DNA from: Planctomycetota bacterium
GTDB lineage: Bacteria; Planctomycetota; Planctomycetia; Pirellulales; Pirellulaceae
Direction: 5' to 3'
NCBI GenBank assembly: GCA_026692865.1
Contig: JAPLNI010000053.1
Coordinates: 62,001-126,000 of the forward strand
Length of the DNA stretch: 64,000 nt
Below, piece after piece: positions 2,063 to 9,711 of this stretch. Position 1 is the stretch's first letter, and each line of letters begins with the position of its first letter. Position numbers and translations under genes: made by a program. The notes beneath the pieces are model-generated. The model saw only the letters and a program-made list of their open reading frames with translations, ran no database searches and was not told where the DNA came from.

Positions 2063-3064
2063 TTACGCCACAAACTCTTCTTCGCCTTCGGCACTTGGGC
2101 GAGCCAACTGGCCGGAGTCTTCTAGTCCACGCACGATGTCGACGATCTTTTGTTGAAGTCCTTCGACTTCGGCTAGTTTTACGCGACCCAAGAAGCTCAT
2201 TTCTTCTTTTAGCATTTCGGCAGCACGAGTCGACATGTTGCGCATGACCTTTTCTTGGAGCGCTTGGCTGGCTCCTTTGAGCGCCATCGCCCATTGTGCG
2301 GTTTCGACGTTCTTGAGCACCATTTGAATGTCTTTGTCTTGCAGTTTTGAAATGTCTTCAAAGACGAACATGAGACGTCGAATCTCGGAGACCAAGTCGG
2401 TACTTTCCTTGGCGAGCGAGTCGAGAATGGTTCGTTCGGTGGCTCGATCGGATACGTTGAGTATTTCTGCGACCGCGGGCACCCCGCCAGCTTTTTGGAA
2501 CGACTGACTCATGAACAAAGCCATTCTCATTTCGAGAGCTTTTTCAACTTCATCGATCGCTTCCGGGCTGGTCTGCCCCATCTCTGCTATTCGACGTACC
2601 ACTCCCAATTGTTTGTCCGGTGCGAGACCTGCAAGGATCGCTGCACCAGTCGCTGGCGGGACGTGCGAAATGACCAATGCGATCGTTTGGGGATGCTCAT
2701 CGGTGATGAACGTCAAGATGTTTTGTGGATCTGCCTTTTGAAGGAAACCAAACGGAAGCGACTCGATGGTCTGCTGAAGGAGTGTCAGCATGTCGCCGGC
2801 GTCTTTACCAAGCGCCTTTCGAACCAGCGCTTTAGCCTTCTCCAAACCACCGGTACTCGACGAAAGCGAGCTCGGTTGGCTATTGAAGAACTCGGTAAGA
2901 ACCGATTCTTGCTCCTTACCGCCAACCTCGTCAAGCTGGGCAATGGCCAGTGAAACTTGCTCCACATGGCGTGCCGGTAGCCGCGACAGAAGCGATGCTG
3001 CTTCGTCTTCTTCAAGTGCCATCAGCAAGACGGCCGCTTTTTGTACACCCGAGGTGATCGCCAA
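2063..3064 (-). CDS. fliG: Flagellar motor switch protein FliG
   Basis: A 333-residue protein of normal FliG length. FliG sits in the cytoplasmic C-ring of the flagellar basal body, binds FliF and FliM, and takes torque from the MotAB stator. The N-terminal domain starts at SGVQKAAVLLMALEEDEAAS; the middle domain has the diagnostic EHPQT (TDEHPQTIALVISHVP, near residue 120); the C-terminal domain carries the charged helix region SDRATERTILDSLAKES followed by RRLMFVFEDI. The tail is acidic (GEEEEFVA). No other flagellar gene is adjacent: the upstream gap is about 500 bases and the downstream neighbour is a convergent TIM-barrel gene, so fliG is isolated here. The family call is secure. Confidence 0.95.
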   Translation of the reverse strand: MAITSGVQKAAVLLMALEEDEAASLLSRLPARHVEQVSLAIAQLDEVGGKEQESVLTEFFNSQPSSLSSSTGGLEKAKALVRKALGKDAGDMLTLLQQTIESLPFGFLQKADPQNILTFITDEHPQTIALVISHVPPATGAAILAGLAPDKQLGVVRRIAEMGQTSPEAIDEVEKALEMRMALFMSQSFQKAGGVPAVAEILNVSDRATERTILDSLAKESTDLVSEIRRLMFVFEDISKLQDKDIQMVLKNVETAQWAMALKGASQALQEKVMRNMSTRAAEMLKEEMSFLGRVKLAEVEGLQQKIVDIVRGLEDSGQLARPSAEGEEEFVA

Positions 3065-5652: not shown

Positions 5653-8600
5653 TTACGAGTCCATTCTGTAAGGTCGAATTTTCTGAATCTTGCCGTCGAT
5701 TTCGTCGTAGTAAATTACGGCGTGCGGTTCGAGGCGGTTGGCTGCCCCGGAATCAATGAGAGTATTGGAGTCGTTGTTGCTCATCTGGCAAAGTATTCGC
5801 ACTTCCAGGTCTCGCATTCCCTGTCTTGGAATCCAGCGCCCGAGATTTCCGGCGCTGTCGCTGCAAACGATTGTGTGCATTCCAAGCGGTGGCCCCTCGC
5901 GGAGCAGCTTTGTAAAGGTCGCTTCGGCAGTTGGCTTTGCGGCCATATCCATGCTACTTCCAAAAGAGAAGTCATCGTTGCGACGTAGCTCACGAAATCT
6001 GCCTAGATTGACAACAAAGAAGCAGAACGATCGGTGCGGTTGATCGGGACTTGCAAGACGACGCTCCAATTCACCGGCGAGCCACTCAAGCATGGCATCG
6101 CAATGACGATAATCAGAATACAAGTGTGCGTCGTCGATTGGTTTTGAAAGATCGCCGACTTGTTCAATCGAAGTTGGTGTAAAGTGCTTTTGAAAGTTTG
6201 GTCGAAGTTCGACAGCGAATCGATCTTCCGCGCGAGAGCCATCTAAGAAACAGATTTGCGGGACACGAGCAACATCGGTTTGCTCGTACCAACCTCGCCA
6301 AATGGAACTGACTAGATTTGCAACGATGGCGTCGTCGCTTCCCACAATGGCAACATTTCTTCCTGATTGACGTGCAAGCGTTTTTACGATCGTCGGCTCG
6401 ATAGAAAGGCTTTCACCAAGCACCATTGAAAGAGCCTGCGGGTCTTTGTTTTCTAGCGATTTCCAACCTCGATCGACATCGAACTTGTTCCACAACGCGG
6501 GGCGATGGCCTTCAAAGACAATCTGTCGTCCAAGTGTAGTGGTCGAAGGATCGGGTAGTCGTAGGCTTGAAGAGCGATTCGAAACTGATTCGTTAATGGA
6601 CTCTAAAACAGCTCCATGATTTTCCGCGGATAGATATGCGACTTGAAACGGTTGATTGGATTCTACGCGCCCGCCCGCATCGTTGTAGATCGCTTGTCCG
6701 GAATGTCTTAAACGACTCGCGGCCATGTTATCTTCACCCAGGATCAGCATCGCATCAGCCCCGTCACATTGCAGAGCAATACGAACTGCCATCTGAGCAA
6801 GCGTAGTTCGCGGTAACGAATAAGAACCGCCCAAGGTTTGTGAAGCCATCACCATATGAATTCCAAACGAGCGGCCCTGGCGAACGATACGATCCAAGAG
6901 CATCGCGGACTTTTGAGCGAGCTTATCATCCTCAACAAACATCTCTTGAAACTCGTCGATGACCACAAGAACTCGCGGCATCGCTTCGTTGGGTTTGATG
7001 CGGCACCAGCTTGGTACATCTTGAACACCACAATCGCGAAACATTTCGCCTCGCGTCGTCATCACGCGGTCGAGATACTCGAGGGCACTTAAGCCAAACT
7101 CGCGACGACTTTCGATTCCAATGATGTCCGCGTGGGGCATTGCAGCATGGGCGTAGACTTGAAACTCGACCCCTTTTTTAAAGTCCATCAAGACGAATCG
7201 AAGTTCATCCGGACCGTACTGAAGTGCAGCGCTCGTGATCAATGTGTGAAGCAATGAAGACTTGCCCGAACCAGTCTTGCCAGCAACCAAAACATGCTGA
7301 GCGGTACCCAGTCCCAGTCGCATCATCTGCGTTCGACCAACTCCAGCGATCCCCAATGGAACAATCAAGCCATCGCTACTCTTGCTTGATCCGATCTCCG
7401 ATTGCTTCATTGCAATTTGCGCGAAGGGTACCTCGATTCTTCCGGCCTTGAGAGCTCCTTCCTTACATGATTCGATGATTGTTGCTAGTCGATCGGAAGC
7501 TGGTGGAGTTTCAAGTTCGATCGGATACTTGCTTCGAACAGCATCAGACAAAAACCCAACAGCGTTTGGTGGCTTAGAAGATTCGTGTGTTGAATTGCGT
7601 GGTGTATCTTCGTTCTTGATCTCGATTGTTAAGCCCTGCCCAAAGACTTTCGATTTGTCTGCGAATGCTGGCCAAACTTGTGTTGGATCGATCGTAAGCA
7701 GCACCCCGATTCCGCTGCGTGGTCCCGAAACAAAGAGCGTGCAGAGCGACTTCCACGATTGCTCGTCGAGTCCGAATGGAAAGTTTACCCAAACGATCCA
7801 GCGAAATGGTTCTGCCATTGGGCCAGCGTCGGCGTTGTAATCAATAAGATCTACATAGCGGTCTCGAAGTCGCTGTTGAATGATCTCCTCATTTTGATAA
7901 GCGAGTAGCGAAAGCTGCTGTGCGATTTGAGAACTTTGTGTCCACACGCGATGAGTGACCAAACGCGGGTCCGCATCGGCAAGCGGCATTAGCCAACCAA
8001 AGTCGCGTCCAAGTCCCTCTGGATCGATAATCGTCATGTGCAACGATCCCATCGGAAGACTGGTTACACCTCGTGCAAGAAGTTGCTGAATAACCAGAGA
8101 AGCCTGTTCGCGATGATCGCGATTGGCAATGACCGACAGGGTACCATGTCGCATTAAGTCGTAACAAACAGGTATCGATAGATGAACCGAAGCATCGTGT
8201 TTCGCTCCGCCAGATATCGCTCCTTGCCCAAGTACATGGTGCGCATCATCGTGAACGGTAACTGAATCGAATTGTTCAGAGCTTTGAGTGTCGTGATCGC
8301 CATGCATCTCGCCATGCAACTCGACATGCATTTGGCCGATCGGAAAGGAAGTAGTATTCGCGTCGCGACTCCATGTACCGGCAATCCAGACTGGATCGTC
8401 CCATTTGGGAAAGGCGGTCGCAAAAGTAGCCCGATCTCGATCGATTCGTTGATGAGCCGCGATAGTTCCTTGACGTGCACGGAGGCTCAATCGGTCGATC
8501 TGACGTGTCTGCTCTTGGAGCGACTCTTGCAACGTGCTTTGGAATTCCGCTTCTCGTTGCTGTTTTGATATACGAACGGCATCTTGAAGCCGTCCGAAAA

Positions 8601-9711
8601 GTGGGGTTTGCACTCGATCAACATCGGACAACTTCTCATCAAGTGCAGTTGCTGCGGTAGTTCTAATCGCAGCCTGTTCTGTAGTGAGCGTTGAACGATC
8701 GGTCGCATAGGTTTGTTCCAGTTTTTGACAAAGCGATTGATAGTCGATCGCGAGTTGCTTTTGCTTGGAAAGATATTCCGAAAGCAATCGTGCTTGTTCG
8801 GCTTTGCAGTTTTTTTCTGCAAGGCTACGGACTTCGTCACTTTTCTTTTGAATCGACCAAAAGTTCTGCATCATTTCACGATAAGGCCCCAGCATGGTGC
8901 GTTTCATTCGCGACATCATTGCGAAGATCGTGATAAGAGGGAGCAGTATTGCGAGCCCCAGTCCCACCGACGGCCCCAACCAAAAAGGCTCGGGCTGATT
9001 TTTGAAGATGAACCAACCGATCAAAACCGCAGGAATTACTCCAATAAGCCACGGTGCGATCGAACCTGAGAAGCGAACAATCGATGTCTTTCGAACGCGC
9101 TCATCCAAATCCTTGATTCGGGTCGTGAGCGCTTGGATCGATTCCCATCCAGCAGTTGTCGTAGGAGACTTGGTTAGTTCGGTTGCGACGTCCGAATCGG
9201 AAAAAGTTGGAATGGATAAATTGCGGCTAAGAACGAGCGTTCGAAAATCATCCAAGACTTCATTCGCCTCGCGTTGCTTGCTTCCGAGAGCCAGCACAAG
9301 CTTTTCAAGTGATTGAGCCGGCTTGGGTTTTCGCTCTTCATATTGACGCGTAAGAGTCGCTTGTGATTCTTCATAAGCTTTCTTTTCTTGCGAAGTTCGA
9401 AGCTTAAATCGTTCGGCTAGTTCCTTTGATACACGTTCCTCCTTTTGAATCGAGCTCCAGGTTTGGCGATCGGCTGCCGCGAAGGATTGCTCGCGAGCAA
9501 CATCCCAACTTGTGGTGGCTTGCTGGATCTTGCGTCGCTGTTCCGCTTCAAAAATAATGGAGTTTTCTTGAAAACGACCGCGGATTTCACCGCGATGTTT
9601 CTCGAAGGTTGCGATCGTCGATTGGGTTAGCCCGCTGAGTCTCGAAATACGGCGAGAGAGACCGGAGATAAATTTTTGCTGTCGTGCGTCGCTCAGTGTT
9701 TTTTTTCGCAT
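5653..9711 (-). CDS. Membrane-anchored FtsK/SpoIIIE-type ATPase with three ATPase-like modules
   Basis: A 1352-residue protein. Residues 1-215 are helical and charged (coiled-coil-like); two membrane segments follow (about 217-236 and 245-265), then another coiled-coil region to about 430 and a histidine-rich patch near 450-500. A first RecA-like module (about 530-690) lacks a P-loop but keeps a strand like RWIVWVNFP and the GPRSGIGVLLTIDP segment. The central FtsK_SpoIIIE domain is intact: Walker A GKTGSGKSS at 811-819, Walker B VLVVIDEF with D919-E920, and MVMASQT as sensor. A third module (about 1110-1350) has a degenerate P-loop (AIVGSDDA) and Walker B (FFVVNLG). Two membrane helices followed by serial FtsK domains recall EccC/EssC of type VII secretion; no WXG100 partner is in the window. 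The gene follows purB and a HAD gene with a 75-base gap. Exact substrate (DNA or protein) is unknown. Confidence 0.85.
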   Translation of the reverse strand: MRKKTLSDARQQKFISGLSRRISRLSGLTQSTIATFEKHRGEIRGRFQENSIIFEAEQRRKIQQATTSWDVAREQSFAAADRQTWSSIQKEERVSKELAERFKLRTSQEKKAYEESQATLTRQYEERKPKPAQSLEKLVLALGSKQREANEVLDDFRTLVLSRNLSIPTFSDSDVATELTKSPTTTAGWESIQALTTRIKDLDERVRKTSIVRFSGSIAPWLIGVIPAVLIGWFIFKNQPEPFWLGPSVGLGLAILLPLITIFAMMSRMKRTMLGPYREMMQNFWSIQKKSDEVRSLAEKNCKAEQARLLSEYLSKQKQLAIDYQSLCQKLEQTYATDRSTLTTEQAAIRTTAATALDEKLSDVDRVQTPLFGRLQDAVRISKQQREAEFQSTLQESLQEQTRQIDRLSLRARQGTIAAHQRIDRDRATFATAFPKWDDPVWIAGTWSRDANTTSFPIGQMHVELHGEMHGDHDTQSSEQFDSVTVHDDAHHVLGQGAISGGAKHDASVHLSIPVCYDLMRHGTLSVIANRDHREQASLVIQQLLARGVTSLPMGSLHMTIIDPEGLGRDFGWLMPLADADPRLVTHRVWTQSSQIAQQLSLLAYQNEEIIQQRLRDRYVDLIDYNADAGPMAEPFRWIVWVNFPFGLDEQSWKSLCTLFVSGPRSGIGVLLTIDPTQVWPAFADKSKVFGQGLTIEIKNEDTPRNSTHESSKPPNAVGFLSDAVRSKYPIELETPPASDRLATIIESCKEGALKAGRIEVPFAQIAMKQSEIGSSKSSDGLIVPLGIAGVGRTQMMRLGLGTAQHVLVAGKTGSGKSSLLHTLITSAALQYGPDELRFVLMDFKKGVEFQVYAHAAMPHADIIGIESRREFGLSALEYLDRVMTTRGEMFRDCGVQDVPSWCRIKPNEAMPRVLVVIDEFQEMFVEDDKLAQKSAMLLDRIVRQGRSFGIHMVMASQTLGGSYSLPRTTLAQMAVRIALQCDGADAMLILGEDNMAASRLRHSGQAIYNDAGGRVESNQPFQVAYLSAENHGAVLESINESVSNRSSSLRLPDPSTTTLGRQIVFEGHRPALWNKFDVDRGWKSLENKDPQALSMVLGESLSIEPTIVKTLARQSGRNVAIVGSDDAIVANLVSSIWRGWYEQTDVARVPQICFLDGSRAEDRFAVELRPNFQKHFTPTSIEQVGDLSKPIDDAHLYSDYRHCDAMLEWLAGELERRLASPDQPHRSFCFFVVNLGRFRELRRNDDFSFGSSMDMAAKPTAEATFTKLLREGPPLGMHTIVCSDSAGNLGRWIPRQGMRDLEVRILCQMSNNDSNTLIDSGAANRLEPHAVIYYDEIDGKIQKIRPYRMDS

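What the first reader, a model, noticed from the sequence alone, without database searches (positions are those of the whole stretch)
5653..9711. Three-module FtsK-like ATPase with two degenerate ATPase domains, membrane anchor and coiled coils
Seen: one intact Walker A/B module (811-819, D919-E920) between two RecA-like modules that have lost their P-loops, behind two membrane helices and about 200 residues of coiled coil on each side. Known: EccC/EssC of type VII secretion have two membrane helices followed by serial FtsK domains, and the dead or weak modules there regulate the active one. Inference: this may be the motor of an undescribed secretion or translocation system in planctomycetes; no WXG100 or other classical partner lies nearby, so partners would be elsewhere.
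Basis: partly seen in the sequence, partly recalled or inferred. Interest (0 to 1): 0.75.

Follow-up and report, generated by a model that had tools for sequence, protein, structure and literature searches.

The report
Membrane-anchored type VII-like motor module
The gene encodes the membrane-anchored motor of a small type VII-like protein-handling system whose WXG100 partner is kept elsewhere in the same genome; motor and partner are kept together across planctomycetes, but export itself has not been shown.

Summary
In detail: a 1352-aa ORF with a predicted membrane hairpin and three RecA-like modules, only the middle one with Walker motifs (50 of 50 aligned family members). Module 1 folds like the inactive DUF domain of EccC (VIA Z 16.7), modules 2-3 like an EccC/EssC tandem. 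The missing partners exist. Relatives carry an operon: WXG100 protein A, helical protein X of no known family, WXG100-like protein B, motor. In the window's genome A and X lie 86 kb away on the same contig, a candidate B on another contig. Motor and A occur together in 38 of the 41 genomes with either among 294 Planctomycetota, and in 118 of 123 among 199 of the window's family, although the operon is often broken up. By sequence the motor groups with plasmid 'WXG100-FtsK' cassettes rather than classical EccC or FtsK. That kind was noted in a 2012 table footnote and is called a minimal T7SS. The membrane-anchored planctomycete form, X, and the dispersed yet jointly kept genes were not found described. 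Against plain T7SS membership: W-x-D not W-x-G, no YxxxD/E tail, no EssB. Export is inferred, not shown; a non-exporting conflict role remains open.

The parts
5653..9711 (-). Whole gene: three-module FtsK/EccC-like motor, 1352 aa (stop included)
9061..9711 (-). Residues 1-217: N-terminal charged helical (coiled-coil-like) region, predicted cytosolic
   Evidence: composition only; CoCoNuT-associated relatives are described with a coiled coil here (PMC11090510)
8911..9060 (-). Residues 218-267: two hydrophobic segments (218-236, 249-267) with a short loop, predicted inner-membrane hairpin
   Evidence: hydropathy; basic flanks on both outer sides
8425..8910 (-). Residues 268-429: second charged helical stalk region
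   Evidence: composition only
7447..8424 (-). Residues 430-755: module 1, no P-loop, fold of the EccC DUF domain
   Evidence: (8rin Z 16.7; 7np7 Z 16.4; YukB 9qks Z 14.6)
6565..7443 (-). Residues 757-1049: module 2, the only one with Walker A and B
7258..7281 (-). Walker A GKTGSGKS, residues 811-818
   Evidence: intact in 50 of 50
6952..6972 (-). Walker B VLVVIDE, residues 914-920
   Evidence: DE in 50 of 50
5656..6564 (-). Residues 1050-1352: module 3, RecA-like, no P-loop. (Partners lie outside the window: A at G000:C53:158077-158343 +, X at C53:158339-158818 +, candidate B at C26:221963-222157 -)
   Evidence: module 3; partners:

Best explanation
It is the membrane-anchored motor of a minimal type VII-like (WXG100-FtsK) translocation module made of four conserved proteins: A (90-aa WXG100 hairpin), X (about 165-210 aa, helical, no known family), B (about 70-90-aa WXG100-like hairpin) and the motor. 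Shown here by sequence and prediction: the anatomy of the motor, the A-X-B-motor operon in relatives, and joint retention of motor, A and X. Inferred: the motor hexamerises on the inner membrane through its hairpin; modules 1 and 3 are inactive ATPase folds that gate module 2 and receive substrate; A and B pair as an Esx-like dimer; X is the client or adaptor that the pair presents; ATP hydrolysis by module 2 then drives export of A/B, with X, across the inner membrane.
For: Module 1 matches EccC/YukB DUF domains and modules 2-3 the EccC/EssC tandem. WXG100 Pfam matches 15 of 15 A proteins at E<=0.1; the own A scores 28.2 bits against a cut-off of 27.3. Nearest solved structures to A are HP0062 (3fx7, E 5.9e-13) and then EsxB/EsxA. 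Motor and A together in 38 of the 41 genomes with either among 294 and in 118 of 123 among 199; X in 39 of 294, always with A. A, X and B all beside the motor in 32 of 49 loci phylum-wide and in 20 of 20 loci chosen because A lay near. At least one predicted membrane segment in 45 of 50 motors, two in 30 of 50 (one of these not a hairpin).
Against: No YxxxD/E in the last 30 residues of A (0 of 33; 6.4 expected from shuffles) or B (0 of 34; 0.7 expected); W-x-D replaces W-x-G. No EssB over cut-off in 26 genomes; YukD in 4 of 26, on other contigs than the motor. The four plasmid relatives scanned have no predicted membrane segment in their motors, and several sit in conflict-type neighbourhoods. 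Only one WXG100 match over cut-off in the window's genome, so no sign of an arsenal of substrates. The curated EccC model is matched far below its cut-off (111 of 509 bits). Nothing shows export.
Confidence: 0.6

Rival explanations
1. A membrane-tethered intracellular conflict (defence or stress) complex: the WXG100-like pair and X are subunits or sensors of the motor, which remodels or loads something inside the cell, with no export.
For: The motor groups with WXG100-FtsK proteins whose loci carry VWA, CARF, PP2C and kinase genes (Caballeronia), HNH nuclease + SMI1/KNR4 (Helicobacter), TerD (Rhodococcus) or Hsp70/GrpE (Rhodococcus). The motors of the four loci scanned have no predicted membrane segment. 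The CoCoNuT paper says that a mechanism other than classical secretion is likely for such TM-less motors (PMC11090510). A Ser/Thr kinase gene lies in 4 of the 66 planctomycete stretches clustered.
Against: Most planctomycete motors do have membrane segments (45 of 50). Apart from A, X, B and the motor (with opposite-strand frames of them), the neighbour families found in 4 or more of 66 stretches were sulfatase (6), PQQ propeller (5), and, with 4 each, Ser/Thr kinase, DegT-type aminotransferase, DUF1549/1553, DUF1501, DUF1559 and histidine kinase: no nuclease, CARF or VWA among them; rarer neighbours were not annotated. One A match in 115 of the 119 A-positive family genomes looks more like a resident gene than a defence island.
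Confidence: 0.27
2. A DNA translocase, an FtsK paralogue used in chromosome or plasmid movement.
For: FtsK motors score Z 25.0 (267 aligned) on the whole model, tied with EccC (Z 23.9); module 3 alone is best matched by FtsK, Z 19.5.
Against: The FtsK match covers about one module, while module 1 matches EccC/YukB DUF domains; the sequence group is split from FtsK (99/94, with a long-branch warning); the genome has a separate FtsK (C25, 205 bits); retention tracks WXG100 proteins.
Confidence: 0.06
3. A decayed or non-functional motor left behind after loss of its operon in the window's lineage.
For: Two of three modules lack P-loops; the operon is split; B is only a candidate.
Against: The same state is shared by the aligned family with the middle module intact in 50 of 50; A and X have open frames in the same genome; relatives in the family such as G303 hold full-length motors at a split place too.
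Confidence: 0.03

Closest known systems
WXG100-FtsK 'minimal/mobile T7SS' cassette (HP0062/HP0066-type, TerY-P- and CoCoNuT-associated; PMC3482391 footnote, PMC4978471, PMC11090510)
   Same: Three FtsK-type modules with only the middle one active; two WXG100-type proteins, HP0062 also with WRD in place of WXG (PMC3397514); sequence group 99/94 with the planctomycete motors for 5 of 6 plasmid rows tried
   Different: The four plasmid motors scanned lack membrane segments (the CoCoNuT paper says the same of its own) and sit beside nuclease, CARF, VWA, kinase or TerD genes; most planctomycete motors have a membrane segment, and the operon has component X
EccC/EssC of type VII secretion (T7SSa/b)
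   Same: Two membrane helices, inactive DUF module, active FtsK module, further degenerate module; WXG100 partner
   Different: One ATPase fold fewer than DUF plus three (EccC layout recalled); long charged helical regions where EssC has FHA domains (PMC11090510); EccC model at 111 of 509 bits; no EssB over cut-off; W-x-D and no YxxxD/E
FtsK/SpoIIIE chromosome translocase
   Same: Fold of the active module (Z 25.0)
   Different: Module 1, partners and sequence group differ; a separate FtsK is present
T7SSc-T7SSj variants of Gram-positive bacteria (PMC11217815; abstract and passages)
   Same: EccC-type ATPase plus WXG100, lineage-specific further parts
   Different: Described for Actinomycetota and Bacillota; their components were not compared here

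Membership tests
Type VII secretion system (EccC/EssC type) | Motor with membrane hairpin, inactive DUF module and serial FtsK modules | tested here: met
   (predictions)
Type VII secretion system (EccC/EssC type) | Motor reaches the curated EccC/EssC model score | tested here: not met
   TIGR03924 111.1 of 509.15 bits; TIGR03928 82.3 of 778.4 bits; TIGR03925 65.7 of 346.55
Type VII secretion system (EccC/EssC type) | WXG100-family partner in the genome | tested here: met
   own A 28.2 bits over Pfam cut-off 27.3, but 27.1 against 44.85 for NCBIfam TIGR03930; A in 38 of 39 motor-positive genomes
Type VII secretion system (EccC/EssC type) | W-x-G motif in the hairpin turn | tested here: not met
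   W-x-D in 33 of 33 A and 33 of 34 B (the other is a fragment), W-x-G in none
Type VII secretion system (EccC/EssC type) | YxxxD/E C-terminal signal on a WXG100 partner | tested here: not met
   last 30 residues: A 0 of 33, B 0 of 34; X 1 of 33
Type VII secretion system (EccC/EssC type) | EssB/YukC membrane component (T7SSb) | tested here: not met
   0 of 26 genomes over cut-off, one weak match below it (G107, E 9.3e-4); B. subtilis control rang
Type VII secretion system (EccC/EssC type) | EccB membrane component (T7SSa) | tested here: inconclusive
   0 of 26, but no control genome rang
Type VII secretion system (EccC/EssC type) | YukD/EsaB ubiquitin-like component | tested here: inconclusive
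   4 of 26 genomes, on other contigs than the motor; none in the window's genome
Type VII secretion system (EccC/EssC type) | Motor-dependent export of the WXG100 protein | not testable with these tools
   needs fractionation of a deletion strain
WXG100-FtsK minimal/mobile cassette | Three FtsK modules, only the middle one active | tested here: met
   Walker A: middle 50 of 50, first 0 of 50, third 0 of 47
WXG100-FtsK minimal/mobile cassette | WXG100 gene and a second small helical gene beside the motor | tested here: met
   32 of 49 loci have A, X and B; 20 of 20 loci chosen for a nearby A; not beside the motor in the window's own genome
WXG100-FtsK minimal/mobile cassette | Motor groups by sequence with those cassettes | tested here: met
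   13 planctomycete and 5 plasmid rows against 5 EccC-type and 3 FtsK rows, 99/94; a sixth plasmid row (Hymenobacter) fell with FtsK; the tool warns of long branches
WXG100-FtsK minimal/mobile cassette | No membrane segment (as described for CoCoNuT-associated motors) | tested here: not met
   window motor has two; 45 of 50 have at least one
FtsK chromosome translocase | Groups by sequence with FtsK | tested here: not met
   separate FtsK in the genome

The most novel reading that the evidence does not exclude
Planctomycetota, which are diderm bacteria, carry a genuine four-part type VII-like protein exporter (A, X, B and a membrane-anchored motor). It is mostly a single chromosomal set, inherited mainly by descent and kept as a functional unit even after its operon has fallen apart. 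It uses a W-x-D hairpin pair without the classical YxxxD/E signal, and X is its own dedicated client. The plasmid and Helicobacter cassettes would then be soluble, conflict-adapted relatives of it.
Probability: 0.35. Interest if true: 0.8.

Novelty: new variant of a known kind. Interest (0 to 1): 0.62.

Why it matters
[quoted passage not shown] Here a motor-WXG100 pair is kept in 118 of 199 sampled species of the window's planctomycete family; that planctomycetes are diderm is recalled. If the pair exports protein, that is type VII-like export in a diderm lineage with a very small parts list. If it does not, the EccC/WXG100 pairing has a non-secretory use. Deleting single genes would tell which.

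Tried and rejected
Rejected: chromosome translocase (the FtsK fold tie spans about one module). Rejected: that the partner is lost in this genome. The Tad pilus link: CpaF-TadB-TadC genes lie directly upstream of the motor in L004, L005 and L006 (L143 covers the same stretch as L005), but were not found near the motor in L145, L147, L149, L151, L153, L136-L138 or in the window; kept as a lineage note only. X was compared with Pfam, NCBIfam and PDB sequences without a credible match; the best PDB row (Pyrin, E 0.0015) and the MHC class I rows, which cover about 35 residues, are taken as chance. B against the PDB gives EsxA at E 0.0016, below two unrelated helical rows, so B's WXG100 nature rests on Pfam (5 of 18 at E<=1; the one printed is below cut-off), position, and cross-matches between the A and B profiles. 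Candidate B of the window's genome: E 3.2e-4 with the phylum model and 30.5 bits with a model of three B proteins from L136-L138 (on a small set of loci); likely, not certain.

Limits of the counts: Fisher p-values ignore relatedness and are not used as probabilities. Component searches used 26 of the 39 motor-positive genomes. Motor fragments G124:C505, G079:C311 and the two of G219 were left out of the fetches. Some of the 17 loci without a full A-X-B set begin at or near the motor's own start and cannot show it; four pairs among the 49 are near-copies (over 85% identical motors). Three of the five EccC-type rows were so labelled by me (one annotated only as FtsK domain protein, two unannotated). 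Neighbour families were called on ORFs of 90 aa or more by a simple script and only those in 4 or more loci were looked at.

Papers: PMC3482391, PMC4978471, PMC3397514, PMC11090510, PMC3796261, PMC3935865 and PMC11217815 were seen as passages only; Anantharaman 2012 (Ter systems) and Sutcliffe 2011 are not held and were not read. No paper held all of 'type VII secretion', 'Planctomycetes' and 'WXG100', yet the 2012 footnote exists in other words; subscription journals were not searched.
Full report
1. Observation. The ORF at 5653-9711 (minus) is a 1352-aa protein. Pfam sees one FtsK_SpoIIIE stretch at residues 782-960. The best NCBIfam model is the T7SS EccCa domain (E 6.3e-32, 111 bits against a cut-off of 509). 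The best PDB sequence match is EccC 4nh0 (E 3.9e-31), ahead of FtsK (2.4e-10). In an alignment of 50 family proteins the middle module keeps Walker A and DE in 50 of 50, the first module has no P-loop in any of 50, and the third in none of 47. So the pattern 'dead, live, dead' is a family trait, not decay.

2. Fold. Residues 430-1352 were folded with an alignment of 15 rows (mean pLDDT 73.5). Residues 430-755 match the EccC DUF domain (8rin Z 16.7, rmsd 3.9, 223 aligned; the ESX-5 and ESX-3 complexes Z 14.9-16.4; B. subtilis YukB Z 14.6). The rest matches the EccC ATPase 2-3 tandem (4n1a Z 23.8, rmsd 6.8, 485 aligned); the whole matches 4nh0 (Z 23.9, 731 aligned, rmsd 12.7, so domain positions differ). 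FtsK scores Z 25.0 over 267 residues (all). Residues 1050-1352 folded alone (pLDDT 77.3) match FtsK (Z 19.5, rmsd 3.0, 237 aligned) and EccCb1-D2 (Z 18.3).

3. Membrane anchor. Two hydrophobic segments lie at 218-236 and 249-267. In the family 45 of 50 motors show at least one such segment and 30 of 50 two (in L053 the second is far from the first); 5 show none by this simple threshold, among them L079, which also falls outside the other planctomycetes in the tree.

4. Partners. The search for related loci gave 15 planctomycete loci. Reading their upstream DNA showed a 90-aa protein (A), a helical protein of about 165-210 aa (X) and a 70-90-aa protein (B) before the motor. A is WXG100: Pfam PF06013 in 15 of 15 at E<=0.1 and NCBIfam TIGR03930 in 15 of 15 at E<=0.01, the own A below the latter's cut-off. 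Its nearest solved structure is Helicobacter pylori HP0062, which also has WRD where others have WXG and lies in a cluster with an FtsK gene (PMC3397514). B matches WXG100 in 5 of 18 at E<=1. X has no family. Phylum-wide, 32 of 49 motor loci carry A, X and B, 15 none, one A only and one B only.

5. The window's own genome. A is at C53:158077-158343, 51% identical to the query A, and X follows it (C53:158339-158818); the motor is at C53:67656-71711. A candidate B is at C26:221963-222157 (strengthened). In six other genomes with split genes whose loci I fetched, A-X stay together in 6 of 6, and B-motor in 3 of 6.

6. Co-occurrence. Of 294 sampled planctomycete genomes 39 have the motor (E<=1e-30), 40 A and 39 X (E<=1e-6). 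Motor and A are together in 38; motor only G219; A only G271 and G279. X is in 39 of the 40 A genomes and in no other. In 199 genomes of the window's family: motor 122, A 119, both 118; motor only G379, G384, G409, G467; A only G479. Joint keeping without linkage argues for a shared function. Relatedness was not corrected for, and some different-contig cases are due to draft assembly.

7. Marks of classical T7SS that fail. W-x-D replaces W-x-G in all 33 A and 33 of 34 B (the other is a fragment). The YxxxD/E tail is absent from A and B (0 of 33, 0 of 34), where shuffling A's tails would give 6.4. EssB: none over cut-off in 26 genomes, one weak match below it. YukD: 4 of 26, on other contigs than the motor. 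EccB: none, but the control was silent.

8. Nearest kin. tblastn on plasmids found 130 records. Four of the closest were read: Caballeronia pSBC2-5 (VWA, WXG100, 436-aa and 113-aa proteins, 76-aa protein, FtsK, CARF, VWA, PP2C, kinase, AAA), Rhodococcus AH-ZY2 (FtsK, 314-aa protein, two small proteins, TerD), a Helicobacter sp. plasmid (89-aa protein, HNH nuclease, SMI1/KNR4, 77-aa protein, FtsK) and Deinococcus. Scored against 27 proteins of these loci, the A profile matches a small protein in all four (85, 39, 55 and 34 bits); the X profile weakly matches the 314-aa Rhodococcus protein (20 bits), but as well the A-like protein of that locus (21 bits), so this is a hint only; the small genes just before the Caballeronia and Helicobacter FtsK are not matched by the B profile (1-3 bits). 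In those two loci the A-like gene and the last small gene before FtsK flank other proteins, as A and B flank X; from position alone I infer that X holds a client or adaptor place. A tree of the active module puts 13 planctomycete rows and 5 plasmid rows on one side (99/94), with 5 EccC-type and 3 FtsK rows, plus Hymenobacter, on the other. Planctomycete rows do not form one clade (L079 lies apart), several branches are long, and the tool warns that long branches meet.

9. Neighbours. In 66 stretches around motor and A genes the only families shared by many loci are the motor, A and X, plus opposite-strand frames of them; B is under the length limit. Others in 4-6 loci are sulfatase, PQQ propeller, Ser/Thr kinase, aminotransferase, DUF1549/1553, DUF1501, DUF1559 and histidine kinase.

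10. What is known. [quoted passage not shown] H. pylori WXG and FtsK genes are called a minimal set of T7SS (PMC4978471). CoCoNuT-associated relatives have the same three-module pattern, an N-terminal coiled coil, two WXG100 proteins and no membrane segment (PMC11090510). I found no text in the passages seen on X, on a membrane-anchored planctomycete form, or on the split operon; the searches were made, in open-licence papers only.

11. Mechanism. Most likely a membrane-seated, ATP-driven translocation module with A-B as an Esx-like pair and X as its client. That the parts belong together is well supported; that they export protein is inference (0.6). A non-exporting conflict complex is the main rival (0.27).

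Noticed in passing
G313:C3:4884-9394, G443:C83:17275-22169, G428:C837:8632-13159 (places only, not fetched): Three genomes of the window's family hold a second, divergent motor match with a second A match on the same contig, perhaps a conflict-type cassette beside the usual one.
   Followed up: no
L004:6447-9858, L005, L006:1-2174: In some Pirellula-type MAGs the motor follows CpaF-TadB-TadC-like genes of a Tad pilus system and precedes a LuxR-type response regulator; not found near the motors of L145, L147, L149, L151 and L153.
   Followed up: partly
window 2063-3064: A complete FliG (flagellar switch) gene two genes downstream of the motor; no link to the motor is suggested.
   Followed up: no
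L161:2619-8607 (Rhodococcus pseudokoreensis plasmid): Hsp70, TPR and GrpE genes directly before a cassette-type FtsK, recalling the H. pylori gene cluster listed as 'DnaK homolog, WxG100 family' in PMC4978471.
   Followed up: no
L079 (G107:C1:7872000-7887000): A planctomycete locus with A but no recognised X or B; its motor has no predicted membrane segment and branches outside the others.
   Followed up: partly
L007, L047, L075, L080: A Ser/Thr protein kinase gene lies within the fetched stretch of four motor loci; WXG-FtsK cassettes elsewhere also carry kinases, so this may be chance or a trace.
   Followed up: no
L043:9128-10000: A 290-aa ORF directly before A in the window's genome with weak TPR matches, all below Pfam cut-offs.
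   Followed up: no
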